From Halichondria panicea (Eukaryota; Porifera; Demospongiae; Suberitida; Halichondriidae), in NCBI RefSeq assembly GCF_963675165.1, contig NC_087384.1:5449182-5513181 (forward strand): a stretch of 64,000 nucleotides of DNA, written 5' to 3'. Shown in pieces: positions 22,161 through 59,130 of the stretch (its first letter is position 1; every line of letters begins with the position of its first letter). The notes under the pieces are model-generated. The model searched no databases. It saw nothing but the letters and a program-made list of their open reading frames with translations, and was not told where the DNA came from. The translations under genes and the position numbers were made by a program.

Positions 22161-22641
22161 TTAAGGGTGCGTGCATGTACACACTAACAAAGTTGCTTCC
22201 ATGCACAGGTGCCCAACATCTGTTCACAAAGGCTATGGTTTCTTGGAAACACACCAGCTACCTTAGAAGTGACACTATGCACCACGCACTTACAGCACAT
22301 TCCAAAACCACAACACACGTCAGTAAACGAGGCATCGTTGAACGGATGTTTAAGAACAAAACACTATCTAAGGTTTCAGGGGTAGTGACAGATTGGCATG
22401 CTTCCAACATTAACATTACAAACTTCCTATAGGGTTAATTAAGATGATTTCAAACCTAAAATCACATGCACTGTACAACCCTGTACCGTGCATACGTATT
22501 ATATGGTACATACTTCTAAGACACAACCAATGGTATATAAGTTGCATGTTCAGGAGTTGCAATCAGAACAAGCTAGATCTAGCTGAATTCATCTCATCTC
22601 TAGAAACCATCCCGACACTGCAATAACAAGCGAGTATAGCA

Positions 22642-23724
22642 ATGAATCTGTTGTGCCTAGCACTCGTGGCTACTTCTTTCCTGACTGAGTGTGCTTCTCT
22701 CGACTTTTCGCAACCAGTAAGTGCTGCAGACTACCAGTCAATTATCAAACAAGGGTTTGCTACCAACTATTTCAAGACATGCCTTCCTACAGCCGACAAG
22801 TACCAGACCAAGAACATCCAAGACATCTACGATAAAGGGTTTCGTAATGTGAGGCTCCGCTGCCGACCAAAATTGTACGAAGATCAGTATGATACGGCCG
22901 AGTTTAATTTCTTTTTAACAAAATTAGCAGAAGTAGTTGATGAGTGTATTGAACATGGTGTTGCTCCAATCATCTCGTGGGAGCATCATTATGCCGAGGC
23001 CAGAGCTAATGAAACAGATCGCCATAATTATATCGACTGGTGGACAAGAGTAGCTGAGAAGTTGCAGGACAGAAACTACCATGCACCTTTCTTTCAACCT
23101 CTTTACGGAGTTGGGTATTGATTTTTGCAAAGGGAATTGTAAAGGAAGTTTACGGAGAAACAAAACAAAGTACGATGATTGGACATCTGAAGTAATTAAA
23201 GCGATTCGTGAAAGAGGTGGTAAAAATGCTGACCGGATAATTATTTTGCAGAAAAAACTTCACTGGGTCTTGAATACATTCGTCAAAATGCGGCTCCCTA
23301 TATGGATTCTTACATGATGGTCGAGTGGCACGAGTATGCTGCTGGTCCTACTGCTATACCAGACAGACCACGGTACTGGAGTGGAAATGGATCAGATGCA
23401 CAGAAAAGGCTATTGGTAGAAGGTGTCGAACGAGCAAGCAATTTTACGGTTGCGACAGGTATACCTACTTACTTTGGAGCATGGATGCCAAGAGACAATA
23501 AAGATGGAAGCGTGCCAGAGCCTGATGTCATCAACTTTGATCGATTTTTTGTAGATTTGTTGAAGTCTGCACAAATCCCATGGTCCCTGAACATGATTGA
23601 TAACTACTACGTCACAAAGGGGAGCAAATGGCAAACTAAAATACAGACTTTGCCACATGGGGTGGATGGGGCACCACTCAACATGTCTCGTGTTCTAGAC
23701 AATATTCTAGACGTGATGAACTAG
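22642..23724 (+). pseudogene. Secreted GH5-like hydrolase, broken copy 1
   Basis: An intronless frame opens with a signal peptide (MNLLCLALVATSFLTECAS) and continues through FRNVRLRCRP, ISWEHHYAEA, FNLFTELG, DSYMMVEWHEYAAGP, FGAWMPRDN and ends at a stop at 23722-23724. The order and spacing resemble glycoside hydrolase family 5, with FTELG in place of the acid-base NEP segment; I cannot see the usual nucleophile Glu in FGAWM, so activity is doubtful even before decay. Two lesions break the frame: a 4-base insertion (CATG, 23080-23083) just before the FTELG segment and a deletion of about 7 bases near 23250, judged against copy 2. Intronless structure amid intron-rich neighbours could mean retroposition or transfer from bacteria. 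Confidence 0.7.
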
Positions 23725-24363: not shown

Positions 24364-25289
24364 ATGAATCTTTTGTGCCTAGCACTTGTGGCTACTTCTT
24401 TCCTGACTGAGTGTGCCTCTCTAGACTTTTCGCAACCAGTAAGTGCTTCAGAATACCACGCAATGATCAAACAAGGGTTTGCTACCAACTAATTTCAAGA
24501 TACGCCTTCCTACAGCCGACAAGTACCGAACTAAGAACATCCAAGACCTCTACGATAAAGGGTTTCGCAATGTGAGGCTCCGCTGCCGACCAGAATTGTA
24601 CGAAGATCAGTATGATACAGCCGAGTTTAATGTATTTTTAACAAAATTAGCAGAAGTTGGGTTGATGTTTGCCAAAGGGATTGTAAAGGAAGTTTACGAA
24701 GAGACAAAACAAAGTATGATGCTTGGACATCTGCAGTGATTAAAACGATTCGTGAAACAGTGGGTAGAAAAAATGCTGACCGAATAATTATTTTGGGATC
24801 ACCAGAAAAAACTTCACTGCATGGGTCTCGAATACATTCGTCAAAATGCGGCTCCCTATATAGATTCTTACATGATGGTCGAGTGGCGCAAGTATGCTGC
24901 TGGTCCTACTGCTATACCAGACAGACCATGGTACTGGAGTGGAAATGGATCAGATACACAGAAAAGGCTATTGGCAGAAGGTGTCGAACGAGCAAACCGT
25001 TTTACGGTTGCAACAGATATTCCTACTTACTTTGGAGCATGGATGCCAAGAGATAATAAAGATGGAAGCTACCAGAGCCTGATGTCATCAACTTTGCTCG
25101 ATTTTTTGTTGATTTGTTAAAGTCTGCACGAATCCCATGGTCCCTGAATGTGATTGACAACTATACTACTTCACAAAAGAGAGCAAATGGTTAACTAAAA
25201 ATCAGATTCTGCCATATGGGGTGCCAACTGGAGCACCACTCAACATGTCTCGTGTTCTAGATAATAATTATTTTAGATGTGATGAATTA
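24364..25289 (+). pseudogene. Secreted GH5-like hydrolase, broken copy 2
   Basis: It is highly similar to copy 1 from the signal peptide onward. Lesions differ: an extra A at about 24490 creates a stop after ATNY-equivalent sequence, about 170 bases around the FTELG segment are deleted near 24657, GCAT is inserted at 24819-24822, and a base is lost near 25069. Conversely, it keeps the GSPEKTS stretch deleted in copy 1. The independent lesions show both copies decayed separately after duplication, or that assembly errors affect both. Confidence 0.75.
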
Positions 25290-25734
25290 GTGCATGCACT
25301 TTGCGACAATTTGTAGATAGCTTCTTACTTTTTTGTATACAGCTAAAATATTGGACTATATTATAATCATGATTTTTATTATCAGTGCATGGAATGTGCA
25401 AAAGTTGGGTGCATGTGGTTCACTTCTACAGTAGCTGAGTGTTTTCCAGGAAAACCAGTTGACCTGTGGAAGCAACCATGCATGCCTGGAATGAACCATA
25501 ATTATATGATATTCGAATTATATAATTATAGATACATAATTATATACTAGGAAATATTTCATTGGTGCCAGCATTGATAACAGAATTGGACATCATGCTG
25601 CATTGCTCTATAAACAGTCAATAATATGCTGTTTGCAGCTTACAATGGCAGAGTAAGATTGGTCAGGCATGTAGTGGTAAGGACTTATAAGGTTTACACA
25701 TGCATGCAGTGTTCAGCAATTTTGCAGTGATATA

Positions 25735-26976: not shown

Positions 26977-29908
26977 CTACAGTAGTTTGGTAGTAACAGT
27001 GGCTTGCTCGTCATCGTATATCTCATCTTCGGAGGTGAGTGGTACTATTGGGCGAGGAACAATATCATCGTACACATGATGGACATCTGTGGTATACTCC
27101 ACCATGTCAATTTGTGATCCCTCCTGACTGTGAGAAGTATTCACTGAATTTGAGGATGGGGGGCGGTGCCCATATGCAATATTTTCATTCAGTATGTCAG
27201 AGGCTTGTGCAACTTCCATGTCATTTGGATTAGAGAAGGATGTGTGAAGGTGAAGAGAGTGTGCAGTGTGTTGCTGCCTGGGTTGTACTTGAGCATGTTC
27301 TTGTATTCTTGAGGCCCTAATGTGGACATATATACATGCGTGCATGCATGCACATGCACAGTAAGAATCACAGTCACCAATGGATCAATTATAGGTTAAT
27401 ATAATATAAATACAGTCATGTGTGGTGACCATAATTATACCTATATAATTTATATAGTAAGTTACCTCAGAAAGAAAATCGTACTTTGAATAATTATAAT
27501 AATATACTATTAGGCATTAAGTAGAATCATACACATTGCTATACGTTCTTTAAAACCATGCAGCCTCTCATGCCTCTCTTTAATTTGAATTGGTATCACT
27601 ATCAGTTCTGCAGTGCTCAACTATCTCCTTGACTATATGCATGTACTGGGTTCAAGAGGCCATCTGTTTGTGTATCCTAATATTATAATAGACAGCCATG
27701 CATGCATGCATATACATGTATATATAGTCAGTACAATAGTTGTTTACCAATACTATAATCGTATATATATATATATGGATTGTGTCATATATATGACATT
27801 GGAAAGTTACTTATCATGCATGCATGGTAGAATGTTGCTGTTTTACTACAGATCCATGAAAAGTAGTACTATATGCGGAAATGCTGCAATCAGATTGGCA
27901 TTTTCAACTTCTTTCCACACGTAATATCCAAATGGAACGAGGAGCTATGGAAAGGGCAGGCATACATGTATGTACCCGTCTCTAGCTAGTCAAGTGTTAT
28001 AAGCTCAGCGCAGCAAAGCAAGCCATAACTTTTTTTACTGTTATTCGGTGTCTCAACTAAGGATAAATGTAATCTTCTACTTAACAGTGCTCATCCTAAC
28101 ACTATATCTTTTGTAGTATTGGACACTTTAAAAAAAAGCTCCCTTAGTTGTATTCGCATTCCAACCGTTATCATTTTTTACAAACGCACACATGAATGGT
28201 ATACCTTTTGCCTATTGTAATAGTGGCTTACATTCGGCTTTTCTTTTTATACAGACTGGTGATCACAGCGATAACAGCCATGGTCGAACAGATGACGACT
28301 ATCCCAATTACAGCTCCTCCTACAATCCAGTTTGTATATTTCTGTTCTGTTAAGGTGCTGTTGCACGCCAGAGTCCATGAAGTGCTTGTGTTTGTGCTAA
28401 ACAATTTTTCCAAATGTAGAACTTGGGAATTAAGAATGATCCTTTGATCTTCAACATTCTATAGGGAAGTTATAATTATAATGTCCCTTGTAATTTGAGC
28501 CTGCTATATATATACGTATCGTTGTCTTGCAATGGTATGACTAATATAAGTGGTTTACATAGCCATGAAGTGAAAGTTTAAAACAACTACGTATACATGC
28601 ATGAATGTATTATTTTACCTTCCAGATCTCAATGAGTGCAATCACATCATCAGCGGTTATTGATGGACTACTTGAGCTGCACTGGACCACAACAGTAGAG
28701 GTGAAGACAACCTCATCTGTCGCTGATTTTCCACAGCACTCAAATGATGGATTGATAATGTCGTAAGAGCATTGTTGTGACTGGGTAGTGCAAACACTGT
28801 GTAGAGCAGACTGTTTGATTTGAGATATCAGCTCATTGGATTGAACACTGTTGTTAGGCTGAAGAAATGTGCATAAGAATTTTTATTTCGAGACGCCTGC
28901 CTATAATTATGGCCATTTTCTGGCTATTAACATTTCGACATAGTTGCAATGCTATAATAGGAGTAGGGCAGAGCCACTGGTCCACTTTTACCTACTTGAA
29001 CCATGTACCCATCCGGCAGCATGAAGGCCATAGTACGGCATGCATGCAGGTGGCATTGTGTCACTATAAGATCTTGACCTAAACATGCACGCATCATTAG
29101 ATACGACAGGCACAGTGCAGCTCTAGCAATCAGTTTGATTGAGTACTAATTATCCGCCCACGATGTACCCATGCACGTAATTAGTGTAATCAGAAGCTAA
29201 TTGCTTAAACTGCACTGCGCCTGTTTGTCGGACCTCCTTTGCACCCATTACATGCTGTATAGACACAACAATCTTATACCATTAACTCACATTCCATTCA
29301 CGGCAGTTGTTCATTCCAACAAGCACTAACTGAAAGTTAGCTTTAGTGATAGCTGCGTAAGTATTACAATTTGTTAGAACATGCATGCAACTCAAATAAA
29401 ACTAACAGTTTCTCACCTTGAACCTTCACATTGAATGTATTACTATGGTCAGTGTTTCCCATGCTACATCCATACAATCCTGTTTGTTGAAAATTTACAT
29501 TGCACAGAATGAGAGTCCATATTGTGTACTGTGTTCCTGAGGATGACGTAAAGTTCTCAAATGTTAGTAGTGTTTCATTGGTGTTGGTTAGTAGCTGGTC
29601 ATTCCTAAACCAGCTGACTCGCTGGTTGTTAGAACTAACACAACTCAATGGTAGGAGTGAGTTTTCAGGTACCGACACATCACTTGGTGTTAATGAAAGA
29701 AATCCTGTACAGGTTGTATGTAATGTATATATGTATATAAGTGTATATATGTATATAAGGTTCAGGACTGATCTATTGATACGATTACTAATTATAGCTA
29801 TACATCATACACATCAAGAAACAGAGGAGTGTCACCTTTAGTTGGTGTTGTAATGAAGAGTGCTACAAAAAGCATTGTCCTTGTAGTCAGCATTATATAA
29901 CATGCCAT
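26977..29908 (-). CDS. Single-Ig type I receptor with tyrosine-bearing tail
   Basis: Six exons: 29908-29836, 29704-29417, 29352-29291, 28858-28619, 28458-28232, 27316-26977; 409 residues with closed phases. A signal peptide (about 1-21) precedes one Ig domain (Cys46, Trp56, LYGC with Cys103). A Cys-containing stalk of about 150 residues that I do not recognise leads to one membrane helix (about 266-290) ending in YKKKSR. The 119-residue tail holds DILNENIAYGH (Tyr345), VEYTTD, VYDDI and IYDDE. The tail tyrosines look like SH2- or PTB-docking sites; they do not fit strict ITIM or ITAM spacing. The NIAYG block matches the integrin beta tail at 54912-56682. Ligand unknown. A TIR element lies in an intron at 29100. 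Confidence 0.85.
29100..29248. repeat. GC-rich TIR element, copy 2
   Basis: The left part ACGACAGGCACAGTGCAGCT faces CTGCACTGCGCCTGTTTGTC. It resembles 17091 and 55639 but lies in an intron of the Ig receptor and is diverged. Confidence 0.7.
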
Positions 29909-32222
29909 TTGATCGTAGCTTTGTCTATAATAATACAGCTGGTAAGACAATCGATTTTTATATTGACATAAAATTATATAATACGTCTACACTGTCATGT
30001 ATAATTATAGCTTCTGAACTGAATCTAGATGAAATTTTAGAGTGATGATCTATAGTTTTATATTATTAGCGTGTCAATAAACTGTTTCTTTGAAAGTAAC
30101 TGTATCTATACTCTGACTTTGAATAGTGTCTTAACAGTCAAACATTCCTGTGCATGCATGTGTTTGAAATATGATACAGGAAACGTATAATATAATTATG
30201 TACTGTATTAATCGATATTCAGTTCACAACTGTTAGAAATACTATAACTATGCATATATGTACCTGCCAGACCCCAGCACACCATTCACCTATTCCCGAA
30301 CCGGGATCCGGATAGGCCTCTGGCCATTAGCGGCAACGCAAGCAAACTTGGAGACGTTGGCAGGAGCCCGGGAAGAGTTTTTATTTCTTCTTAACGGACT
30401 GGTACCCTGTAATCAGATTGGCTGGAGATAGGGTTATATTAGTTTTGCAGGTGATCAGTGTGTGTAAACACTTCAGCATAACTGTTTAGTATAATACATG
30501 CATTATCATATATAGTCCATAAATGTAGTTATTATGAGCTCTTGTGTTCTAATACATACATAGGTTACGCAATAATTGAAAACACACACTACTGCACTGT
30601 CAATCCTATATGTACAACCTACTGGTTGTACTAATCCTGTTCCACAATGCAATAGCCCAACACAGGCATTCCATATAGATTCGTAATCAGGTTTGCATGC
30701 ATGGTTGAATGATAACATTTTCTCCAATGCCTTGAATTTCAAATCGTGTAAGACTCCTTCTCACGACAATAATATTCCATGCTTCTAAGCTAGACTGTAG
30801 GAGTATATATATATATTCCATGCTTCTAAGCTAGACTCACTGTACATTCACTGCATAGAAACATATAGAAACGTGTTGCTATAGCCTAAATCCTTGCCAG
30901 GGCAGGAGTATAGATCTAGACTAAAATACTATGACTGTGTGAAAGAAACAAATGTATATAGCTAGATGTAGACTATTCTGTAACACAAAATCTACAGATA
31001 CGTGTCTTGGAATCATCAGTATATATAATTATAGCTGCTTTAATTTGTCTACTTCCTCCATCCGTATCCTGGATGAGCTCGGTCATCTCACTCTCTGCTC
31101 TCCATTGGAGAAGAAACATTGAGGTATTTCTTTCCACGTACATTTAGGTCTTAGCAATCAAACTTAAGATCGACTTCTGATAGTCAGCTTGAGAACCACT
31201 ATAATAGCGCTGATGACCGAATACTACGGTGGCCCTGAGTGCTACTCTAGTTGATAGTTCATACTTGATAGTTCAAATGCGTAGTTGCTACTTGATAGTT
31301 CAAACGTGTAGTTGGTAGTTGGCAGTTGGTATAGTTCGTGACCTTTACACCCATAATAATTGCTAGATATCTAGCTGGCCTAAGACGACAATAACTTATA
31401 TGTATAATCTCTATAGGTAGGGAGGCAATTTAAAGTCTAATCCCCCACCTATAATCCCGGTAGGGGGGCAAACAGGTTTTGCATGGCACTTTTAACATCT
31501 ATCATAACACAGCATAATTAATTGTAAAGGTCACGAACTACCAACTACCAACTGCCAACTGACAACTATAGCAACTACGCGTTTGAACTATATAGCAACT
31601 ATGCATTTGAACCATCAACTATAGGAGTAGCACTCAGCTCATGCACTCAGGGCCACCGTAATACGCACATGCATATACCTCATACTTTTTATCCTGAGCT
31701 TGACCCCAGCACAAAGGTCTGCCAGGTTCGAATGACTGCTGACCTCAGTCATTACCTCACTTTGTCTTTGTCTACTTGCATTTCCCCAGTGATCTAACAT
31801 GTGAGATCCTTAATCCAACCATTATGTCAATGTTTGGTCCAAGGTACATGCATGTATGCAGTCCATGAACAGTACATTAGGTGCATGCAGGTCAGTGGAG
31901 GATGTATTCATTTCACCTATCCTGTTTAGTATAGACATAATACCTTCGACAAGAGTGTTCAGTGAAGAGTAGTGAGAGCAGAAAAGGTAAACTCTAGATA
32001 GACGAGCACTGTCATTACATCACTATTTTTGTCAGTATAGAGTTTCTTGAAAGGTGAAATCAAGGTAAGTTAACTTTATATCATATAATATATCTAGCTA
32101 GACAGCTTCTTCTCAGTGCTCATGCATGCATGCATGCATGGCTGTCATGTGGTTACATTTTCCAGCTAGATGTCTAGCGGGGAAATACTTAATATATAGT
32201 GCCACTCTTTTTCCTGATAGGA
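29909..32222. other. Intergenic, mostly repeats
   Basis: The left part is the upstream flank of the Ig receptor. A 23-base direct repeat (ATTCCATGCTTCTAAGCTAG) occurs at about 30775 and 30817. A 436-base inverted-repeat element is at 31225. The right end holds a likely untranslated exon of the next gene with a donor CAAG/GTAAGT at 32064/32065. Confidence 0.5.
31225..31660. mobile_element. Foldback element, TACGGTGGCCCTGAGTGC ends
   Basis: The ends TACGGTGGCCCTGAG and CTCAGGGCCACCGTA are inverse. Arms of about 130-150 bases contain iterated TAGTTG/CAACTA units (AGTTGGTAGTTGGCAGTTGG at left, CCAACTACCAACTGCCAACT at right). The centre has no open frame. Confidence 0.75.
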
Positions 32223-33218
32223 ATGCCGTCAGGAGGCGGTGGTGCAGGTGCTGGTGGAGGTGGAAGTGGAGGTGGAGGTGGAGGTGGTTTTGGAGGAGGA
32301 GGGATCAGTTTTGGTGGCTATGATGGGGGGAAACTGAAAGCTGTACTTTGCTTTGTCGTGAATCTGGTGATAGTGATCCTTGTAATTGGTTCCTTGATTG
32401 GAGGTGTTCTAAGCAGTAGGTCTAATTCTACAGACATTTCTACAAGTTTTTACTCCCCAGGAGACAGTCGACTTCTGTTTCTGTCCTCATTCTTTTGTGA
32501 TGGTGGTTCTCTTGAGCTGTCTTCTAATTCAGTTAATGCTGAACTGCTACTTGTTGACTCTACCCCACCTCTTGATAACACTAACAACTTTACAATAACT
32601 GTTGATTCAAGTTTTGATCCTTTGGAGTTCCAATTCTGGCAATATCATTTACATCCTAATTCTAACATAACATTGTCCATTCAAACAAATTTTCTCATAA
32701 ATGTGTACATCATTAAAGGAAATGATAATGCAAACCGATGGAGAAGCTTACTAAATGGGGAAATCGCTGAAGAATTCTTAGAGCGAATAACAACTATCCC
32801 GGAGGTTACCTACCAAGTTGAGACAGAAGATGAGTACTACATATTTATTTATAACTCCTTAGCATCAAGGCCTGTGTTTGTGAGTGCATCTCTAACATTT
32901 GAGCGTTTTGAATACAGTGCTCCTGCTGCTGTTTTTTTGAATGGAAGTTGTGTTGTACGTGAGCAGGGACACTGTACTGTTCCAATTCCCTACAACATAA
33001 TAGAGTTACAAGAGTTTTTGGTGATTATCTCTATGCCAGCAGTTGTTGACTATGGTGAAAACATTCAAGTCTCACTTGACTGTGAACAAAGAGGATGGGC
33101 ATACGCAGTTGTCATTCTGGTTCCAATGGCTATAGGTATTACAATATTCCTTGTTAGTTTAGTGCTGTTAATTAATTCATACTCTATTTTAAAACCCATG
33201 CATGTAATAGACAATTAG
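32223..33218 (+). CDS. Gly-rich two-pass membrane protein, paralog A
   Basis: The start is set by paralogs, which all begin MPSGGG; an in-frame ATG 24 bases upstream lies before a splice acceptor (TTCCTGATAG) and is unlikely. The 331-residue protein has a Gly-rich N-terminus (about 35 residues), a membrane helix (about 41-62), a roughly 215-residue extracytoplasmic domain opening FYSPGDSRLL and containing FCDGGSLELSSNS, FQFWQYHLHPNSN and EDEYYIFIYNS, then RGWAYAVVILVP starting a second helix and a short tail. The domain is reminiscent of the lumenal region of APD-type (DUF4792/4793) membrane proteins, but no RING finger is present; this link is tentative. Coding is intronless with a probable 5' UTR intron. 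AATAAA lies at 33291. Confidence 0.8.
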   Translation: MPSGGGGAGAGGGGSGGGGGGGFGGGGISFGGYDGGKLKAVLCFVVNLVIVILVIGSLIGGVLSSRSNSTDISTSFYSPGDSRLLFLSSFFCDGGSLELSSNSVNAELLLVDSTPPLDNTNNFTITVDSSFDPLEFQFWQYHLHPNSNITLSIQTNFLINVYIIKGNDNANRWRSLLNGEIAEEFLERITTIPEVTYQVETEDEYYIFIYNSLASRPVFVSASLTFERFEYSAPAAVFLNGSCVVREQGHCTVPIPYNIIELQEFLVIISMPAVVDYGENIQVSLDCEQRGWAYAVVILVPMAIGITIFLVSLVLLINSYSILKPMHVIDN

Positions 33219-35528: not shown

Positions 35529-36584
35529 TTATACAGTAGTTTCTTGATGCTTAATGGTCAGATGGTCAGGATCGAAGTCACTCCTTTCTGGTTTGGTAGT
35601 AGTAGTACTGCACTTACAATAACAGACAAACAACACGATTACAATTAGGCCAATTATTACAGAAATGGGCACCAAGATAACAACTGCATAGGCCCATCCT
35701 CTCTGGTCACAAATTAGTGAAACTCTGACATTCTCACCCCAGTCCACACGCTCGGGGATAGAGGTGGTTACCAAGAATTGTTGAGACCCAGTACTATAGT
35801 CAATGCCTACTAGGCAATTTCCTTGTTCACTGACAAAACACGACTCCTTAGAGCTTAGGTCAGGGACACTGTATTCTGTTCTCTCAAAGTATAAAGAAGC
35901 GCTCAAAAAGATCTCCATTGATAGTGAATTATGTAAAATTACATAGTACTCATCTTCTTGCTCGACTCGATATGAAACGGTAGATGTATTTTGCAAATCA
36001 TTACAATTGGCAGATGCATAGTAGAACCTCTCAGCCAAATCTTGGCTAGGGTTATCAACCCAACTGTTTGCATTATCATTGCCTTTCACAATGTATACAT
36101 CAACCAACAGATCCGTACACACAGAGACTGATATGTTAGAGTTGGGATGAAGATGATACTGCCAGAATCGAAACTCCGTTGAATCAATTGTCGACTCGAT
36201 AAAAACAGTAAATTGATTAGTGTCATTCAGAGGTGGTATACTCGTGTCTTCGATAAGAAACAGTTCAGCATCAACTGAATTAGATGAGAGCTCAAGAGAA
36301 CCACCATCGCATAAGAACGAGGATAGAGACAGCAGTCGACTATCCCCTGGTGAGTAGAAGTCCGTGGCAATATCTGAATTGTTGTTATTGATATGTATTG
36401 GTATTCCTACCGCCATGCCAATTATCAAAATCAAAATGAATATTATAGCTGTACAACCAGTACAAAATCCACTGTTCTTGTCACTACTTGTGTGGGTACC
36501 ATTCGAGCTGGATCCCCCTCCTCCACCACCCCCTCCTCCACCACCTCCACCACCTCCTCCTGCACTGCCTCCTCCTGATGGCAT
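35529..36584 (-). CDS. Gly-rich two-pass membrane protein, paralog B
   Basis: It has 351 residues, one exon. MPSGGG starts a 25-residue Gly tract, followed by Ser/Thr, a membrane helix (about 45-67, CTAIIFILILIIGMAVGIP), the conserved domain (FYSPGDSRLLSLSSFLCDGG, FRFWQYHLHPNSN, VYIVKGNDNANSW, EDEYYVILHNS), the second helix after RGWAYAVVILVP, and a 40-residue tail with SDFDPDHL. Compared with A it has an added tail and a longer loop after NSW. An acceptor ATTATAG lies just before the ATG, again suggesting a 5' UTR intron. Its divergent arrangement to the relic D and convergent arrangement to A suggest local duplication with inversion. Confidence 0.85.
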   Translation of the reverse strand: MPSGGGSAGGGGGGGGGGGGGGGGSSSNGTHTSSDKNSGFCTGCTAIIFILILIIGMAVGIPIHINNNNSDIATDFYSPGDSRLLSLSSFLCDGGSLELSSNSVDAELFLIEDTSIPPLNDTNQFTVFIESTIDSTEFRFWQYHLHPNSNISVSVCTDLLVDVYIVKGNDNANSWVDNPSQDLAERFYYASANCNDLQNTSTVSYRVEQEDEYYVILHNSLSMEIFLSASLYFERTEYSVPDLSSKESCFVSEQGNCLVGIDYSTGSQQFLVTTSIPERVDWGENVRVSLICDQRGWAYAVVILVPISVIIGLIVIVLFVCYCKCSTTTTKPERSDFDPDHLTIKHQETTV

Positions 36585-36950
36585 TCTTTCTATAATTATA
36601 CAATAATGGACTGATTTGTAAAGTGTATTTCGTATGCTGCCTATGCTGGTCTAGCTGGCTATATTGTTCATATAAAACACATTAACTCAGTGAAACTCAA
36701 ACTTAGAAAAAAATATGTGACGGCTCACAGTAGCTATATATAGATCTGTATTACTATAACTTGCACAATCATACACCACTCTATCAAATGTCTCACATTA
36801 GTTAGAGTTACTTTTTATATCGGCTATTATGTAGAGGTCCAGAGGAAATCATATCATGCATGTGCTTGAACTATCAAACTTTCATGTGACTTCAGAGTGC
36901 TAGGGAATCACTTCAGAGTACTGGAATCTCTAGAGAATGTCTCACCTATA

Positions 36951-47900: not shown

Positions 47901-50900
47901 TAGGATTGCTACCCACGAAATCCACGAAAATTAAGCCCCTCAAAAATTTCACACTATACGGTATAATACAAAATCAAACTATTTACCTCTTCTAATAGTT
48001 TTAGAGCGAAAGCAAAACATGGCGAGAGGCATTAGCACAGCGCAGCTTGCAGCACTCGTTATTTAATAGTGACCCGTTCATGAATTAGAGTTTAATTAGG
48101 GAGGTCAATAATTATTATTTATAGTGAGTGTGAGCATTGTATATATAGGGACAGTGTACTGAGTGGTCTCAATAGAGAGGTGGTTTCTTTTAATTATTAT
48201 AATAGGGATCCGGAAGTAAATACCGTACCCTCGCGAAAATAAGCCCATTTTGAATAAATGCCGATCCCCTCTTTTGCTTCAAAGTTCTTGCACAAGGGTA
48301 TTTTGACTCGATTCTCTAGCTACATGTAGCTCATAGATCAACGAAATTAGCTGAAACAATTCTAAATTTTCACTAATATCCTTCGCATAATTGGAAAAGC
48401 GCTTTAATTTGAGTCTGCAGTTGAGCATGCGCTTGAAATAAAGATTTGAGTGAAGCGCTAATAGTCCAGTTTCTACGGTAGGTGGTCATTAGGTGCAAGT
48501 ATTTAGCAGGTTTCACGGCATATATATATATTAATTTTTATGTCGTGTGTACAGGCTCAAATTGATCGTGTAGCAATCTCTGGAGGTCAAGATACTCCTG
48601 AGGGTGGTTTCGATGGAATGCTCCAGTCTATTGTTTGTACAGACGTGAGTTGATTTTATAATATCACAGTTTCAGATATTACCCGCCCACATGCAGTTAA
48701 TTGGATGGAGAGATGTATCACGTAAGCTGCTTATCTTCATAACTGACGCTGGATTCCATATAGCAGGAGACGGGAAGGTTGGTGTGGCTTAAAAATTATA
48801 CTGAGCACACATGCATATACATGCATGCACACACGTCTGTATTTTGGGTATTATTACCATTGTGTATAAGATATTATTATACCGTAATTAGCCTCGATTC
48901 CATGCCGCGAAGAGAAAGGCGGCCTGGTATATTTTGTATGCGCATGCGCGTACATTACCCCAAAAAGGGGTAATCCGTGTATATTTGTGGATACTGTCAG
49001 TAAAATAAACCGTATACTATTTGTATTCTGAAGTTGCAGTCAGTTACATAGCTGAAGTATTGTGCAAAGATGACTGAGTTCTTACGCCCTTTATTGTATC
49101 AAGCCAAGTCTCTACTTAACGACACCCTACACTGTAAGGCTACAGATGTTATAGGAAAGGCATGGTGTGTTCCTGTGGGTCCCCTGATGAGGCTGTGGTA
49201 ATATGGACCAGGCAAGTCTTCTGCTACTAAATCTTGCCTTTATGTTCAACAGGAAGTTATTGCTGAAGATAAAGAAGCTAATGATTACACCTGAAAGCTT
49301 TTAATAAGCTTTAACTCGACACTCAGGAAGTTTAATATTCACTCAAGATCTACTGATGTATTAAAGAGTCAACCACTCTTCCTAGCTGGCAGCTCTACTG
49401 TCTGGGAGGCCTTCTTGAACCGTCTCTTTGATAAACAGAGCTAGAAGAAGCAACACTGCTGCAGCATAATTATTCTACTTTGATTAGTGTCTCTGAAAGC
49501 TGCCATTGTGGTCACATTGTCATACGTATTGTAACTTTGTCCATTTTTTACAATTTGTATAATGAAATTGTTGTCAATTATTTCGCGCATGCGCATACAA
49601 AGTATACCAGGCCGCCTTTCTCTTCGCGGCCTGGAATCGAGGCTAGCTACACAGCAGCTACAGGTGGGATGGGCTTAATTTTGAAACGGTATTCTGTCTC
49701 GAAATTACTCCCACCCAGGTGTTTGCCTCGAAATTACGCCCACTCATTAAGAAACTCTGAGGCGCTTGAAATACAATGAATACATCAACATACAGCACTG
49801 GTAATGCATGGGTGAAGTAACTAGGTATAAGAAAAGTATATACAAGTCAAGACTTAGAGTTTGCATCAGAAAGTTATTCCTTGTCACTGTCAGAGTCTTC
49901 AACAAAGATTCGGGGAAGATTGTCCTTAATTGTCTGCAAATAGGAGCAATAATTATTGGATCTAGCTATCTAGCTATCTTTAGAGCTAACCAGCTTACAC
50001 AAGAAACTGCTAAACCTTTTCTGACAGCTGCATGCTCACTAACAAGATTGCATCATTTCAAACTCAAAAGCGAAGGTGGGCATATTTTCGAGCGTGGGCG
50101 TAATCTCAGTAGAATACGGTAATACTTTTTATATACCCTTGAAGCTCTTTTCCAAACTGACCATTATTTAATATTGAAAGGTGCATGGTCCTTTAAATTC
50201 AAGTGCATGGTAAAAAAACCTGTACAGTTGTTAATTTTTGAGCAAGCAAGCAATTGACACACTAGATATATGTCTGTCTATATATCCCTCAATCTCAGCT
50301 TGGGGGTGTAGTCCTGCCTAATGACGGGTCATGTAAGATCAGTGGCACCACAGCACCTCAGGACTATAACGACTGGATCACTCTGGACTATCCCTCCATT
50401 GGGCAGATTGCTCAGACCTTGAGAGCAAACGGAATCATCCCAATATTTGCAGCTCCAGCGATAACACTGCCGGTTTATCAGGTGACTATCAGCATGCACA
50501 TATATAGTCACAATTATTATTCCATAAAATTAATGAACTGAATGTGTGTACAAGCATGCATGTAATGATGATATCGTAGTGGATGTATACTTTGAACCTT
50601 TATATTGTATGTATAATTCAGAGCGAAGAGAGGCTCTAACAGGTCACGTTGAGATTTTGTAACTTTAAACTTGGAGGATGTGTTAGTGATTGTACTAAGG
50701 ACACTTAGCTCAATTCTACAGCTCAGAAGGCATTTTTTCAAACATTCTGGTTATAAGCTAGATAACGCCTCTTAAAGTGACATTTCGATCAGATCATTTA
50801 CAATACAGTGGCCGGGCTCCGCCCAGCTACCACTGACCATAGACAATATAGCATTACATTATCTCTATGCTCTGACACACCCCAACATTTGAATGTGATA

Positions 50901-53900
50901 GTGTGGTGATGAAATACGTAGCAAGTTGCATCCCTAGTTATGTATAGTGTATGTATATACTTTGAACTTTGTTCTTTGACTCCACCAGTCGTTGGTACGG
51001 GAATTGGGAGAGGGGGCTTTCTCTGAAACACTAGATAGAGATTCTGGAAACATTTTAGATCTACTTCGGGACAGTTATAATGTGAGTTTTCCATACCAGT
51101 AGACGTTTTATGTGCTGTGTTGCGATTCATTTTCAGAATGTGTCTCAGAAGATTGTTTTCGATAGACAGCAGGTGCCAACAGGAGTCTCTGTGGATATCC
51201 AGCTATCAAGTTGCCCAGGGCCGTGAGTTAAATTTGTATGCACAAATTATATATTACATATTTTCAATTACACCCACTTACCCCCCTTGATTCTCTCTCT
51301 CTCCTCACACACTCTCAGAGTCGTGGGAGGTGTTTGCACTGGTGTTTTGATTGAGAACAATGCTACCTTTAATGTGGTGGTCACACTACAAGAGTGCACT
51401 CCAGATAACAGTGGCACTGTACAGTAAGTATAATACAAACACCTTCTATTTTGAACTCGGACTCATGAAATTGACAAATTAGCAAATTTTACAATGATAT
51501 TTACTTAAAAGATGTACATGCGTCATTAATTTACAGCAATTTTATACTTTCGATTAATTGATTGATACAGGGTTCCTATTCGAGTGGTTGGCTTTGGAAC
51601 TTTCATTTTCAACTTGGAAACAATCTGTACCTGTCCTTGTGACAATGACACAGTGAGTGCATGACAGATTGTGTTCTGATGTTCAGAGGAAGCAGTTTCG
51701 TCTTGAACGCTTGATCTGTTCCAGGATAGATCTATAGCTAGTGCATGCTATATTAACTTTAAAGTCTCACTGCACAGTGAACATCTTGCATCATATTGGC
51801 GCATGCGCAATAGTGGGCGCTTCTACGATTGCAATTAGGCCTCTACATGCAGGACGGTTAACTACGTATGTGTTTTAGTTAACTGCATATACAGTGTAGC
51901 TTTGATGTGCCTTAAAAATGATAACTTACATCACCACTAATTGATCTATAGAAAAGAGCCATGTTTGACGGTACTAAGACTCAAAGCGACAGCAGAAACA
52001 CGCTCCAACAAGATGGCTAAGCCATGGGCGTGGTTTAGATACAATTATCCAAGAAGAGCTTGCAACTCCAGTAAGGCTAGGACGTCAAATGGTAAACGCT
52101 TGGACCAAGGAAGCTCTTGAGCATCTGTAGGAGTCAATGTGTTGCTCAACTAGCTCTTTGACGGCTGCAAAATCCGGCATAGTCTTGTTCTTTTTGCAGT
52201 CTACATCGTGGATTGAATTGTTGCTAGGGGGAGGTCCTTTTATAGTGATGCGGTCACGTGGTATAAGTCAGATATGCCACACCTACTCAGAGGACTTGCA
52301 CCCCATATATCCTCCTCTTAGGTGGTATATCCTATACATATAATATATAGGCTGTCAATGCTAGATACATAACTATACAGTGTGGTTGCCTATACATGTA
52401 ATTGTTCAATGTGTGCTTATTATTTTCATTGCAGTCTCTGAATAGTCCAACCTGCAACAGCAATGGAACACTGGGGTGTGGACATTGTGACTGCAACCCT
52501 GGAAGGTGAGCGTAGTGGCCAATATTCCTCTTTACCCTGTATATATCCCGTAGATTTGGAGAGTTCTGTCAATGTGATGCAACAGGACAGGGTGGTGTAC
52601 AACAGATGTGTCCGTACGTTAACTTTTGTTTAATAAATTTGAAGAAGTTTTATTCACCTAATATCTGATGTGCAGACTTGGCCCCACTGAAGTTCAGTGT
52701 ACTAGCACTGACAGAGGGATGTGTGTGTGTGGGGAGTGTGTGTGTAAGAGGGATCAAGCTGTGAGTCAATAAATTATTGTCTGTTTTTTATCACCCAATT
52801 GTTAATGCAGGGTTTCTTATTTTTTGGACCTGCTTGTGAGTGCAATCGTGATGACTGTCCCTCATTCAATGGAGAGCTGTGTTCTGGAAGGGGCGAGTGT
52901 ACGTGTACTGGGTGTCGATGCAATGTGGAGCCTAGCACTCAGTTGCTATATACTGGAAATGCGTGCGAATGCTCGCCAGTTACTGATTGTGTCGACCCTA
53001 ACAACGCATTGGTATGTTGTGTTAATCCCAACACTCCACTGTAATTGATATAATGGTTTCGTAGCTGAGTCTTACATTAGTACGTATACAATATCAATCC
53101 TTTTTGGATAATGTAACGAGTCTATTTTCCTTTACAGGAAATATGCAATGGGCGCGGTACCTGCGATTGTAGTGGGCAGTGTTATTGTACGTTCCCCTAC
53201 CTAGGAGATTACTGCGAGTTGTGTTCAGGAAACACAAGCTGTCTAGATAATTTATGCCACTCCAATCGAGAGTGCACTGCCTGTGCAATAGAACTTTTGG
53301 ATTTGTTCACCGATGCAGCCACTTTTTTTTCAATTGAAACTTTAACAACCCTGCCGAATGAAACAACTCTCAAATTTGACGCCACAACCAAGAATTTTCA
53401 GCTTCATCTGCCCCGTGGCTATTGCCCAGAGAATTGCTCTCAAGATATTGTTATTATCAGTGGAACTAATGATGTCGACTATATCATCGATAGTAAGAGA
53501 ACACAAAACATACCTCCCTGCATGTTAATTGTGTATCACGCCTGGTATTCATAGTTATGTTCTTGGGAAACTGGTAATTTATAAGCTCCTAACTCCATAT
53601 GCTCATAATGTATAAGTAGTATATGTACAGTAGACTCTCGCTATTCCGGCTCTCTGAAGTACGGCCACCTCGATATACCGGCCATTTGGTTTGGCACGGA
53701 TTGCTATAGCTATATGTTTACTGCACAAAACTTGCCCTGAAATGCGGCCGACTCGCTATTCTGTATACAGTGCCCTAAACTATAGGTTTTTAATGTAATT
53801 TTATACAGCCGGATATGACGTTTTGGTGTGGTTTGGCAGATAAAATTCTTAAAAATAGAGAGCATAATCATTCTGAATCATTCTCCTTGAAACAGAATGG

Positions 53901-56761
53901 CAAAATTAGTCATTAGATTCAAGCAGGAGTACATTAAGAGGAGTATCCAACTGTGGCAGTTGTAGTGTTAACCAGGTTACGGTAGGAGTATGTCATACCA
54001 AGTCACTATCAGACCGCATTTTAAGTGGGTGCGTATAGTGTAGTGGTTACATGTAATTAGTTAAAAATGGTACGTGTATCAGAATACATGCACACGTGTG
54101 GTTTGTACCCCCAGCCCACATTTATCATGGCTAACAGTTTACACAACTACAAGTGTTAGTGACATTCAGTCCTGTAGAATGGAATGTGCGTGGGAGTTGC
54201 ATACTCCTCCTAATGTACTCGTGGTTCGAGGTAGGGTCGTTTTTTTGTCCCAAGAGTGGCTGGATTAACAAGAGTTTACTGTAAACTGCATGGTTGTATA
54301 TTATATTCTCGTTATATAGATCAGATGGCAACTCGCTGTGAGTATATCGGACCTACCTGTACCCATCGTTACTATGTAGCAGTCCACAAGATACCTCTCC
54401 AGTTTACTGATGTACACGTTGAGTTCAGACGATGTAAAAGCTTAGACAATTTGAACGCATACATTTAAGGTTTTTCTGTATAGATTGCAGTCAAGTGTCA
54501 GCCTTAGTTCCTACTTGGGTTGCTGCTGTGGTCAGTGTCACTATAACTGCCGTACTCTCTATTGCTTTAATAATAATGATCAAGCTACTTATTGTAACCA
54601 TGGTAAGTTGACCGAACACCGACATTGAGCATGGTGAAATTGTGTGTAAATTAAGAGTGCAAGTAAACTGTTTTTATTGAACTTGAAATGTTAATCGCAG
54701 GACAATTTTATGATTCGAAAGCTTGATCAGCAAATCTCAAGTATTAGGGCTACGTTGGTGAGTCACTTTGTAAAAGTAGCTACATGTTTACCCTATAAAT
54801 ATGTCACCTTTAATAAATGATATATACAGTAAAGTATGCACGCATACATGGGAAATAATTCTACAACAACATTATGACACACAACAACTATTCAGACTAC
54901 GACATACTCAGGTTATTCCAGATGCACTAGATCTTGTAGAGCTGAATTCTAACAAGGCTTATGGACAAGTGAGGATATCTTTCGTGATTGTATACTGTTA
55001 ACATAATAATTATATCAAATACATGCATGCATGCAGGCAGTCAGTTCCAATACACAACATGGAAGGAATACTAGCTCTGAGGTTGGCAACAATAATTTTG
55101 GCAATTATAGCTAAGCATTCAAAATCAGAGGGTCATTTGTCAGTGGAGGTTGATGAAAAACTGTATCACTCCTTAGTATATATAGCCACATTTGTATATT
55201 ACATTTTGGGTGCGTAGTCCACCTGTAATTATGCATGCTCGCTGTTTTCATAATCCTGAATTCCACAGACCCCCCTATACTCAGAGGTTGATCCAATGGC
55301 ACTAGAAGAGGAGCATCTATATGAGGTTGGCAGCTATATTATCAGGGCCGTAGATAGCTTAGGTTTGCAGGGGTGGTAAAATAACAGCTAAACATTTTTA
55401 CTACTGAAAAAGGTCAACATGCAGTTATTTCATATCCTCTGAGTATAGCAACTTCTAACTTGCTGTGGCACCAACTTAGAGCAACTAAAACAAGATAGCT
55501 TGAACTAGGAAGGTGCTCCTGCTTCCCAGAGGCGCAGTGGAGCTCACAATTTACCTAAAAAAATTTTATCAGCAGTCAGGATGCGCATCAGATAGCCCTG
55601 CCCACATCTCAATTTCATTACATCGCTAATCACCAGAGCAGAGGAGGTCCGACAGGCGCGGTGCAGCTCAAGTAATTAGCCTCCGATTACTCTCAGCAAA
55701 AACATACGACGTGGGCGGTGCGTGGGCGGATAATTATTGTTAATTGCCTGAGCTGCACCGCGCCTGTCGTACCTCCTCTGTCACCAGAGGAGGTAGGACA
55801 TGCATCACATGCGCTTCAATAATTAAAAATCCAAGTTTAACCGCAAAGATTTAGACAAGGATTTGTGCATGAAAAGTGATGATCTTCAAGCAGCCAAAAC
55901 AGCAGCGATCCCACAGTAATTTTCTCTAAAATTTAGCTATCATGTAGTAAAAGGATAGTACTAACTTGTGGATCAGCGATCCCAGTGGGATCCCGGCTCA
56001 ATAGCTTGAAATTTACCATCAAACCTAGTGGTTTTTACTGTACATAAGCTACTACGGAGAGCAGTCTAGGGAGGTTAACTCAGGTTGGTTACCGTCTTCC
56101 ATAACAGTTTACAACATTCAAGATTACTAGAAGGTGACGTGAGCTTGCTAGAGCACTATACAGTACGTCATCTACCACGGGCACCATACATAGCTACACT
56201 GAAATGTAAGGAAAGGTTAAAGGTCAAGAGCCTAACGTAAACATTGTATGCCACACATTCCATTGCCGTGTGACTGATGACACACGTCACAACCTTCTCT
56301 GTCTATTAAATCACTAAAAGCATTGGGCCTGTGCAGATCAATGTTTACAGTAATTTTGGCAAAAGATCTAGAATGCCAGGAGGTCCGGGGGGGGGGCAAC
56401 TGCTCCCCTGCTGTCTATGGCCCTGAAATTATGATGTGAAATTCTGGTATTTAAGTCTTGTTTCATACAGACCATCTCTGTATGTGGTGATGAATCACTT
56501 GACACCATAGAGCTGCAGTCAAACAATGCTTATGGACAAGTAGGTTATTTTACATGGTGGCACCATCTCACTCCTATTCCTTATGACTCCCATGTCTGCA
56601 GACCCAGACCCATTTTGAAGTTGATCCAGCACTACAACAAGAGCTATGTGTTGATTTGCAATCTAACGTGGCATATGAGCAGGTAAGTTAAAAACTATTC
56701 ATTATCTTACCATACTTTTAAAATGCATAATATTATATAGGTTGCTGAGGTTGGCCACTAA
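38912..56761 (+). CDS. Integrin beta subunit with modular tyrosine tail
   Basis: Twenty-five exons: 38912-38975, 39058-39161, 39237-39396, 43489-43593, 46629-46813, 48555-48644, 48697-48777, 50299-50481, 50989-51081, 51137-51222, 51319-51423, 51571-51652, 52435-52505, 52554-52613, 52676-52760, 52811-53011, 53138-53492, 54320-54433, 54484-54602, 54701-54757, 54912-54968, 55269-55325, 56471-56539, 56602-56682, 56741-56761; 894 residues. In order: signal peptide, PSI domain ([14 protein letters not shown]), beta-I domain with MIDAS DLSAS (125-129), ADMIDAS DD (132-133), PEGGF (Glu222) and TDA (Asp253), hybrid domain, Cys-rich I-EGF repeats, beta-tail domain and a helix ([20 protein letters not shown]). 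It pairs with an alpha subunit for adhesion. The 113-residue tail lacks a canonical NPxY and HDR motif and instead has three NxAY motifs. Large introns hold many transposons. Confidence 0.95.
39656..40192. mobile_element. Inverted-repeat element in integrin intron 3
   Basis: AAGAACGCCTGGTCAAGTTC at about 39673 faces GAACTTGACCAGGCGTTCTT at about 40158, and GGCCAAGCCAACTTAATAA at 39783 faces AATTAAGTTGGCTTGGCC at about 40040. No coding capacity. Confidence 0.75.
42174..42300. repeat. Tandem repeat, about 25-base unit
   Basis: Five imperfect copies of a unit built on TATTCTACAGGAAGTGGA follow each other in integrin intron 3. The related string GACGCATATTCTA recurs, with its inverse, around 42805-42875. 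Confidence 0.75.
43824..44066 (+). mobile_element. Probable 5' LTR of a Ty3-like retroelement
   Basis: It starts TGTTACACTC and ends TTTTCACA, contains TATATAAAC (about 43979) as a TATA-like box, and is followed at once by TTGGCGTACTCGGCAGG, which has the form of a primer-binding leader. No matching 3' LTR is in the window; boundaries are inferred. Confidence 0.5.
44091..44588 (+). pseudogene. Truncated retroelement gag
   Basis: A 165-residue frame begins [20 protein letters not shown] and has the capsid-like pattern of Ty3-type Gag ([33 protein letters not shown]). It stops without nucleocapsid zinc knuckle, protease or polymerase, so it is a truncated transposon remnant in integrin intron 4. 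Confidence 0.8.
45570..46464. mobile_element. Foldback element with AATCGATTTTT-iterated arms
   Basis: The left arm starts ATGGAACGCCGTTTGCGA and the right arm ends TCGCAAACGGCGTTCCATA. Arms of about 200 bases contain many AATCGATTTTT units in mirror order. The centre (45815-46250) includes a TAGCCTCGAATCC-type fragment. It lies in integrin intron 4. Confidence 0.85.
46905..47185 (-). repeat. Dispersed repeat, copy 3 (reverse)
   Basis: Its reverse complement follows 9849-10095 and 37712-37993, more diverged. It is in integrin intron 5. Confidence 0.65.
47200..47517. mobile_element. TIR element, ACGGAAGGAGGACGGGA ends
   Basis: GTACGGAAGGAGGACGGGACC at left faces GGTTCCCGTCCTCCTTTACG at right, with further outer similarity (GGCGTTGCCACCCTC and GAGGGCGGCGACGCC). 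Confidence 0.8.
47737..47963. mobile_element. TIR element, ATAGCACGAAATTTT ends
   Basis: It starts TACCGTATAGCACGAAATTT and ends AAATTTCACACTATACGGTA. Its interior is nearly that of 34834-35056. Confidence 0.85.
48889..49645. mobile_element. 757-base TIR element, about 60-base near-perfect ends
   Basis: Left and right ends (TAGCCTCGATTCCATGCCGC at left; inverse TAGCCTCGATTCCAGGCCGC at right) match for about 60 bases including AGAAAGGCGGCCTGGTATA and GCGCATGCGC. The interior has a broken open frame starting near 49070 that I cannot identify. No clear duplication flanks this copy. Integrin intron 7. Confidence 0.85.
53628..54281. mobile_element. Pogo-like element split by a nested hAT-like element
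   Basis: The outer ends CAGTAGACTCTCGCTATTCC and ACAAGAGTTTACTG lie next to TA. The interior matches 14515-14935 until 53923, where the nested element begins, and resumes at 54223. Integrin intron 17. Confidence 0.85.
53924..54222. mobile_element. hAT-like element, nested copy
   Basis: It is about 90 percent like 34434-34722 by eye. Flanks GATTCAAG and GGTTCGAG are each one or two transitions away from the empty-site GATTCGAG seen in sister pogo copies, so they are an aged 8-base duplication. Confidence 0.8.
55639..55780. mobile_element. GC-rich TIR element, copy 3, 9-base duplication
   Basis: CAGAGGAGGTCCGACAGGCG faces CGCCTGTCGTACCTCCTCTG. Exact duplications TCACCAGAG flank it (55630-55638, 55781-55789). 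Integrin intron 22. Confidence 0.88.
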
Positions 56762-58775: not shown

Positions 58776-59130
58776 TAGTGACTCTGTGTGATTCTCTATA
58801 GAGTACCGAGTATACTCGGTGTAAACTGAGTTCACTTGATCATTTCCTGGCTTGTGACAGCTAGGTTGATGTACTGAGACCTCTCTGATAAATAGACTGG
58901 TCTGCATGGTGCATGATATGCATAAGTATAGATCTATACAGACTGACTATAGATATAGACTGTGAGTCTTCAATTCTTTTCCCCCTTTTTTAAGGTAAGT
59001 GTTTTATCTATAATTATAACATGCATGCATGCATGGAGCTATAAGTATAGGTGCAGCATACAAAATATAGCTAAAAATCAGTCTGTGATGTTAATCAAAT
59101 TTGCATTAGATCTATATACCTAAATAAAGA

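What the first reader, a model, noticed from the sequence alone, without database searches (positions are those of the whole stretch)
27170..27200. Same tail motif in an unrelated Ig receptor of the window
The Ig receptor tail has ILNENIAYGH (Tyr345), aligning without gaps to [10 protein letters not shown] of the integrin. The extracellular parts are unrelated. A common intracellular motif in two receptor classes points to a shared adaptor or kinase target, a tyrosine code not described in standard motif sets that I know of.
Basis: partly seen in the sequence, partly recalled or inferred. Interest (0 to 1): 0.75.

Follow-up and report, generated by a model that had tools for sequence, protein, structure and literature searches.

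The report
Shared tyrosine tail motif across receptors
In this animal's genome many membrane proteins with unrelated outer parts carry the same short tyrosine tag on their inner side, which may let one small set of adaptor proteins listen to all of them.

Summary
ILNENIAYGH is at 27166-27195 (minus strand), Tyr345 of a six-exon Ig receptor; the beta-integrin tail carries the motif three times, not once. Genome-wide, LxxNxAYG occurs 375 times against 47 for the reversed pattern. Changing Tyr to Phe (46 vs 75) or Asn to Asp/His (81 vs 74) removes the excess. A partner motif, P-[VILMF]-YEEV, occurs 293 times against 4. Hosts include beta-integrins, FN3/Sushi and IgGFc-binding receptors, tyrosine kinase loci and an apparent type II membrane protein. 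In array tails fetched without regard to the motif its Tyr and Asn are present in 34 of the 34 that reach the site; pN/pS is 0.044 in the motif and 0.71 in the linker. In the integrin, Sushi and one kinase class it sits at phase-0 exon ends and shares synonymous codons, which points to shared descent. The Ig copy shows neither sign and looks independent. The core is the known NxxY class; Asn -3 and hydrophobics at -6/-8 best fit IRS/FRS2/Dok-type PTB docking, and the genome encodes such PTB domains, three of them in one ORF. Binding and phosphorylation are untested. Eight paper searches (partial listings) showed no description of it.

The parts
26977..29908 (-). Single-copy Ig receptor gene, six exons (29836-29908, 29417-29704, 29291-29352, 28619-28858, 28232-28458, 26977-27316), 409 aa; single-pass, tail inside
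   Evidence: splice model; Pfam; besides its own exons only four matches, E 0.045 or weaker
27166..27195 (-). Tail motif ILNENIAYGH; Tyr345 codon 27172-27174
27058..27078 (-). Second acidic tyrosine site HVYDDIV (Tyr379), YEEV/YEEI-like
   Evidence: translation; similar HVYEDVLPQ in the L003 tail
50266..56761 (+). Beta-integrin gene (VWA, EGF repeats, TM, tail), partial model
54701..54757 (+). First integrin tail exon after the TM exon, [19 protein letters not shown]
   Evidence: by eye
54912..54968 (+). Integrin tail mini-exon [19 protein letters not shown], phase 0-0, first motif copy
   Evidence: start by eye
55037..55081 (+). Integrin tail mini-exon [15 protein letters not shown], phase 0-0
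   Evidence: by eye
55269..55325 (+). Integrin tail mini-exon [19 protein letters not shown], phase 0-0, other tyrosine sites
   Evidence: by eye
56471..56539 (+). Integrin tail mini-exon [23 protein letters not shown], second motif copy
   Evidence: start by eye
56602..56682 (+). Integrin tail mini-exon [27 protein letters not shown], third motif copy (AYE variant)
   Evidence: start by eye
56741..56761 (+). Terminal exon VAEVGH-stop
   Evidence: by eye

Best explanation
The motif is a reusable phosphotyrosine docking site, consensus [IVM]-x-L-x-S-N-x-A-Y-G, placed in the cytosolic segments of many membrane proteins of this genome and often paired with a PVYEEV site. Shown here: it is far more frequent than controls, its Tyr and its Asn are each needed for the excess, it tends to lie on the cytosolic side of a transmembrane stretch, and it is under strong purifying selection in one large array. 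Inferred: a receptor-linked or Src-like kinase phosphorylates it, and IRS/FRS2/Dok-type PTB adaptors bind the NxxpY core with extra contacts to the hydrophobics at -6/-8, while Src-type SH2 domains read YEEV. Different outer domains would thus feed one adaptor layer. In the integrin, Sushi, L004/L005 and C-terminal kinase classes the site spread at least partly as a unit at a phase-0 exon end; in the Ig receptor it is best read as an independent single instance (Tyr345) next to a YDDI-type site.
For: Enrichment 375 vs 47, and 32 vs 4 in a sub-pattern with a complete list. Tyr to Phe 46 vs 75; Asn to Asp/His 81 vs 74. P-[VILMF]-YEEV 293 vs 4. Strict TM plus basic residues within 2 kb upstream: 9 of 15 motif clusters, 1 of 15 permuted-pattern places. 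Array tails fetched by TM DNA: motif Tyr and Asn in 34 of 34 that reach the site; pN/pS in 33 of them 0.044 (motif), 0.07 (PVYEEV), 0.24 (between), 0.71 (linker), 0.26 (end of the TM). In 19 aligned instances, picked by [LMIV]..N.AY, position -8, which was not used for picking, is I, V or M in 17. 14 IRS-type PTB matches, three in one ORF; nearest solved relatives FRS3, FRS2 and Dok1. Both PTBs aligned there share the RRYG and GRR arginines with FRS3; that these are the phosphate-binding Arg212/Arg227 positions of IRS-1 (named in PMC3507883) is my inference. Ig tail shuffles 10 of 1,000,000.
Against: No phosphorylation or binding data. Pro at -2, typical of NPxY, is usually absent. The Ig receptor has Asp, not a hydrophobic residue, at -8. 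That IRS-1 uses -6 and -8 is recalled; the passage seen names -9, -8 and -7 (PMC5962649). The genome-wide excess partly reflects amplified gene clusters; the nine TM-positive clusters belong to about four families by eye, and two (L029, L031) show identical TM and tail. Strict TM was not found in 6 of 15 motif clusters. A Dok-like PTB (L021) has no Arg pair at these places by eye. The Sushi/FN3 domains found in L001 belong to a copy whose motif is broken by a stop.
Confidence: 0.6

Rival explanations
1. The pair PVYEEV + AYGx[VL] is an ITAM-like unit read by a tandem-SH2 kinase (Syk type) rather than by PTB domains.
For: In most array tails YEEV and YGP[VL] lie 13 residues apart; P-[VILMF]-YEEV is massively enriched.
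Against: Asn -3 is required genome-wide, while SH2 specificity lies after the Tyr (PMC3507883, passages and section 13); residue +3 is not fixed (YGHR in the Ig receptor, YGVH in the C4 kinase locus, YGQ then a new exon in the integrin); in the Ig receptor and L003 the order of the two sites is reversed.
Confidence: 0.2
2. It is a phosphorylation-independent sorting or endocytosis signal of the NPxY kind, read by Dab/Numb-like PTB adaptors.
For: NxxY core; one host has a true NPAY (L037); nine PID-type PTB matches exist.
Against: Position -5 is polar in 18 of 19 aligned instances, where I recall Dab-type ligands having an aromatic or hydrophobic residue; no excess with Phe; co-occurrence with YEEV suggests phosphotyrosine signalling.
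Confidence: 0.12
3. The Ig receptor's copy is a chance match, although the motif is real elsewhere.
For: No exon border after it; codon sharing with bordered classes 0.404 against 0.365 expected; no paralogue to test conservation; Asp at -8; with the motif masked, 8 of 9 other tails show no similarity at the 0.05 level.
Against: 10 of 1,000,000 shuffles; whole-tail similarity to L003 reached in 0 of 2000 shuffles, and in 19 of 2000 with the motif masked.
Confidence: 0.08

Closest known systems
NPxY / NxxY PTB-docking motifs (insulin and IL-4 receptor I4R motif; integrin beta tails)
   Same: Asn at -3, Tyr at 0, cytosolic segment, residues upstream of Asn constrained; PTB domains present in the genome
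   Different: Pro -2 usually absent, Ala -1 and Gly +1 favoured, reiterated in unrelated membrane proteins, at phase-0 exon ends in several classes
FRS2/FRS3-type PTB ligands (FRS3-ALK complex 2kuq listed)
   Same: Nearest solved relatives of two of the genome's PTB domains; the ALK site as I recall it is an NxxYG site
   Different: Here many non-kinase receptors carry the site, and the candidate adaptor has three PTB domains in one ORF
Src SH2 ligand pYEEI
   Same: PVYEEV and VYDDI follow the acidic +1/+2, hydrophobic +3 rule
   Different: Val rather than Ile at +3 in YEEV; found together with an NxAYG site
ITAM / ITIM receptor tails
   Same: Short tyrosine motifs shared by receptors with unrelated ectodomains
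   Different: Spacing, required Asn -3 and variable +3 do not fit either definition (definitions recalled)
Choanoflagellate HMTK1 PTB (PMC3082566, passages seen)
   Same: A PTB domain that bound NPXY-type peptides and also pYEEI
   Different: A kinase-linked PTB of a unicellular organism; the three passages seen mention no shared receptor tail motif

Membership tests
NxxY / NPxY PTB-docking motif | Asn at -3 needed | tested here: met
   N to D/H 81 vs 74 control, no excess; N in 34 of 34 array tails that reach the site. N in the 19 aligned instances is by selection
NxxY / NPxY PTB-docking motif | Tyr at 0 needed | tested here: met
   Y to F 46 vs 75; Y in 34 of 34 array tails that reach the site, of 40 fetched without regard to the motif
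NxxY / NPxY PTB-docking motif | Pro at -2 | tested here: not met
   Ile in the Ig receptor, Lys/Asn/Val in the integrin; among the instances printed Pro only in L037
NxxY / NPxY PTB-docking motif | Cytosolic location | tested here: met
   Ig model; strict TM upstream 9 of 15 vs 1 of 15; apparent type II case L037
Shc/Dab-type PTB ligand | Hydrophobic or aromatic residue at -5 (recalled) | tested here: not met
   -5 is polar in 18 of 19 aligned instances
IRS-type PTB ligand | Hydrophobic residues at -6 and -8 (recalled; PMC5962649 passage names -9, -8, -7) | tested here: inconclusive
   -8 is I/V/M in 17 of 19; -6 is L in most but was part of the selection; the Ig receptor has L at -6 but D at -8
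IRS-type PTB ligand | Phospho-dependent binding to a PTB domain | not testable with these tools
   candidate PTB domains found, no binding assay
ITAM | YxxL/I-x(6-12)-YxxL/I (recalled) | tested here: not met
   array YEEV-x13-YGP[VL]; Ig receptor Tyr345 has Arg at +3 (YGHR)
ITIM | [SIVL]xYxx[ILV] (recalled) | tested here: not met
   Ig receptor has I at -2 but R at +3; integrin has K, N, V at -2
Src SH2 ligand | pYEEI-like | tested here: inconclusive
   P-[VILMF]-YEEV pattern 293 vs 4; binding not tested

The most novel reading that the evidence does not exclude
This animal lineage built its own counterpart of the ITAM/ITIM system: one tail code (LxSNxAYG plus YEEV), spread partly as an exon cassette and also evolved repeatedly, couples integrins, kinases, Sushi and Ig receptors to a shared multivalent reader, possibly the triple-PTB FRS2-like protein.
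Probability: 0.35. Interest if true: 0.85.

Novelty: new variant of a known kind. Interest (0 to 1): 0.7.

Why it matters
If right, a large set of receptors of unknown ligand in one animal converges on one inner docking code, so their signalling could be studied through a handful of adaptors. It would also be a case of a short linear motif spreading between receptor families on an exon unit, and an independent parallel to the immune tyrosine motifs of vertebrates.

Tried and rejected
Chance in the genome: rejected, although the reversed pattern gives 47 matches, and identical TTTGAGGAGAATATAGCGTATGG copies on several contigs look like a dispersed repeat, not receptors. Places that are not receptor tails by my reading: L010, L013 (a repeat-rich ORF) and L016 of the 14 loci; L038, L041 and L043 of the 15.

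The permuted pattern LxxAxNYG gave 140 vs 63; by reading the 100 listed places this is largely a 17-base satellite and AATTATGG words, so it is a noisy control. The 15 control places are the first of its list after satellite and repeated places were left out, all on C1 and C2.

Ala to Ser/Thr/Pro gave 231 vs 417, no overall excess, but the list shows a paired LKANESYG/LKSNQSYG family on C1 and two LNTNQTYG, so Ser and Thr occur.

Integrin-to-Ig whole-tail similarity: shuffle p 0.058, and 0.76 with the motif masked: no homology shown beyond the motif. In one search the first residues typed for the L003 tail came from its intron (seen); one search repeats the test with the spliced tail, and the result stands.

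Codon sharing was first tested with a grouping chosen after seeing the data and 29 of 42 instances (0.587 vs 0.372, sd 0.054, for six classes; 0.402 vs 0.367, sd 0.048, for eight). Two of its six classes (array, C10) mostly lack the border, so I repeated it with all 42 instances and a fixed rule.

In one search, 33 of 40 fetched tails were used. Six were dropped because the frame breaks before the site (L066, L071, L073, L074, L079, L080) and one because it reads past the usual stop (L072, motif intact). The filter asked for NQ near the end; searches show that no tail reaching the site lacks it. The 40 are the scored ones of 232 first-look candidates.

No structure prediction was run. No other species was compared: says G000 has no relatives here.

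Papers: eight searches; one search returned nothing, the others showed at most 15 papers each of up to 377; no title listed names such a motif. Opened: PMC3507883 (passages and section 13), PMC3082566, PMC5962649, PMC7260276 (passages only).

Mended: array hosts are called FN3/Sushi (no Ig match), the codon test, the L003 test, and what was selected.

Full report
What is there. On the minus strand a six-exon gene (29908-26977) encodes a 409-aa protein: a hydrophobic start, one Ig domain, a cysteine-containing second segment, a transmembrane stretch followed by KKK, and a 118-aa tail with ILNENIAYGH at Tyr345 and HVYDDIV at Tyr379. Pfam gives Ig_3 and I-set with E-values of 1.2e-4 and 3.1e-4, below the curated cut-offs. 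The gene is single copy: besides its own exons, only four matches of E 0.045 or weaker were found. On the plus strand lies a beta-integrin gene (Integrin_beta VWA, E 1.2e-12). Its tail is made of small exons that by eye start and end in phase 0, and three of them end in the motif: [20 protein letters not shown] and [10 protein letters not shown]. A close paralogue of the integrin, with the same three sites, lies about 50 kb further on (L015).

Is it more than chance? In the whole genome the DNA pattern for LxxNxAYG has 375 matches, the pattern read backwards 47. A sub-pattern whose list is complete has 32 against 4; another has 126 against 32. Point changes act as an in-silico scan: Tyr to Phe 46 against 75, Asn to Asp or His 81 against 74, Ala to Ser, Thr or Pro 231 against 417, with one paralogous Ser family in the list. 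In the Ig tail itself 10 of 1,000,000 shuffles contain the motif and none contains both tyrosine motifs.

Where does it occur? I grouped the 32 places of the complete sub-list into 18 clusters; three had been fetched already (L006, L007, L015) and the other fifteen were fetched, with fifteen places of a permuted pattern as control. One rule was applied: a strict transmembrane stretch with basic residues after it within 2 kb upstream. It was met by 9 of 15 and by 1 of 15. The nine fall into about four families by eye. By my reading of the translations, 12 of the 15 motif places are receptor tails or other cytosolic segments and three (L038, L041, L043) are not. One of the twelve (L037) is an apparent type II protein with the motif, there LSFNPAYG, before the transmembrane stretch. 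Of the 14 loci chosen by hand, L010, L013 and L016 do not look like tails.

Host domains. Sushi and a sub-threshold FN3 match lie beside the motif in L007. FN3 and Sushi match in an array copy of L001 whose own motif holds a stop; an ORF of L002 had no match. IgGFc-binding domains lie beside it in L009 and L036. Tyrosine kinase domains lie in the C4 cluster (L011), where I did not prove that kinase and motif share one gene, and in L014, where a kinase end below the cut-off shares an ORF with LQSNEAYD. The parts scanned of L003, L006, L012, L037, L040 and L042, and two ORFs of L008, had no match.

Selection. Forty array tails were taken by similarity of the transmembrane and juxtamembrane DNA, not the motif. 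Six break before the site. In the 34 that reach it the motif Tyr and Asn are present in all; one has Thr for Ala and one Arg for Gly. In 33 aligned tails the YEEV Tyr is present in 32; pN/pS is 0.044 for LNTNQAYG, 0.07 for PVYEEV, 0.24 between them, 0.71 for the linker and 0.26 for the end of the transmembrane part. Pairs of sequences are not independent, so these are point values without errors. The partner pattern P-[VILMF]-YEEV has 293 matches against 4.

Origin. A GTA or GTG directly after the codon that follows the Gly, as at a phase-0 exon end, is seen in 19 of 42 instances: 6 of 6 integrin (two paralogues), 4 of 4 of the L004/L005 class, 3 of 3 C-terminal kinase, 3 of 5 of one Sushi class, 1 of 1 in L005 minus, 1 of 3 IgGFc, 1 of 4 array, and none of the 16 others, the Ig receptor among them. 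The Gln at +2 in that group may therefore reflect the splice border, not the protein. The five classes with the border in at least half of their instances share the same codon at 0.647 of same-residue positions against 0.378 (sd 0.065) expected from codon usage, reached by 0 of 1000 simulations; the eleven others 0.43 against 0.37 (sd 0.032), reached by 51 of 1000; the Ig receptor against the bordered classes 0.404 against 0.365. So part of the spread is by common descent of the DNA, probably exon shuffling, and the Ig receptor is best read as an independent instance. Its tail does resemble that of L003, a protein elsewhere of which two ORFs upstream had no Pfam match: the score was reached in 0 of 2000 shuffles, and in 19 of 2000 with the motif masked.

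Mechanism. A required Asn at -3 and Tyr, with specificity before the Tyr, is how PTB domains read ligands (PMC3507883, section 13 read); SH2 domains read residues after it. Position -8 is I, V or M in 17 of 19 aligned instances and was not used to pick them; I recall hydrophobics at -6 and -8 from the IL-4 receptor peptide bound by IRS-1, and a review passage names -9, -8 and -7 (PMC5962649). The genome has 14 matches to IRS-type PTB and nine to PID, counted exon by exon. One ORF holds three IRS-type PTB domains, nearest to FRS3 and FRS2 among solved structures. A survey found canonical FRS2 only in Bilateria (PMC7260276, passages), so this relative deserves a tree of its own. A choanoflagellate PTB bound both NPXY-type peptides and pYEEI (PMC3082566, passages). 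I therefore favour PTB docking of NxApYG together with SH2 docking of YEEV, at 0.6. The binding steps are inference.

Limits. Patterns ignore introns. Counts include arrays of recent copies, so 375 is not 375 independent events: 217 of them have a fifth codon starting with C and a third starting with A (375 less 126 less 32), in the listed part mostly LNTNQAYG of the C1 array. Lists are cut at 100 places per search.

Noticed in passing
L020, G000:C11:6543207-6544241: One open reading frame carries three IRS-type PTB domains (FRS2/FRS3-like) and several YANV/YANI/YQNI sites; candidate multivalent reader.
   Followed up: partly
G000:C1 about 11.45-14.5 Mb: LKANESYG-like and LKSNQSYG-like sites, often about 195 bases apart, a Ser variant of the motif in its own family.
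   Followed up: no
G000:C1 from 11.2 Mb on: Large array of receptor tails ending in LNTNQAYGP, 232 first-look candidates for the TM exon; possible recognition repertoire.
   Followed up: partly
L037, G000:C2:1654093-1656393: Apparent type II membrane protein with NPAYG and NAAYV before its transmembrane stretch.
   Followed up: partly
L006, G000:C1:10020400-10025400: Tail with several canonical NPxY sites (NPIYA, NPVYA, NPIYS) beside LSGNQAYGG.
   Followed up: no
window 32193-33215, 35532-36650 (-), 59128-59736: Three ORFs matching APD1-4 domains, named after E3 ubiquitin ligases I recall from plants.
   Followed up: no
window 22627-23721 and about 24365-25290: GH5 cellulase-like gene (Pfam Cellulase E 3e-7) followed by a degraded tandem copy by eye.
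   Followed up: no
window 15545-18467: HNOB, HNOBA and guanylate cyclase domains: part of a soluble guanylate cyclase gene.
   Followed up: no
G000:C1, C3, C8, C9: Identical TTTGAGGAGAATATAGCGTATGG copies, a dispersed repeat that mimics the motif.
   Followed up: no
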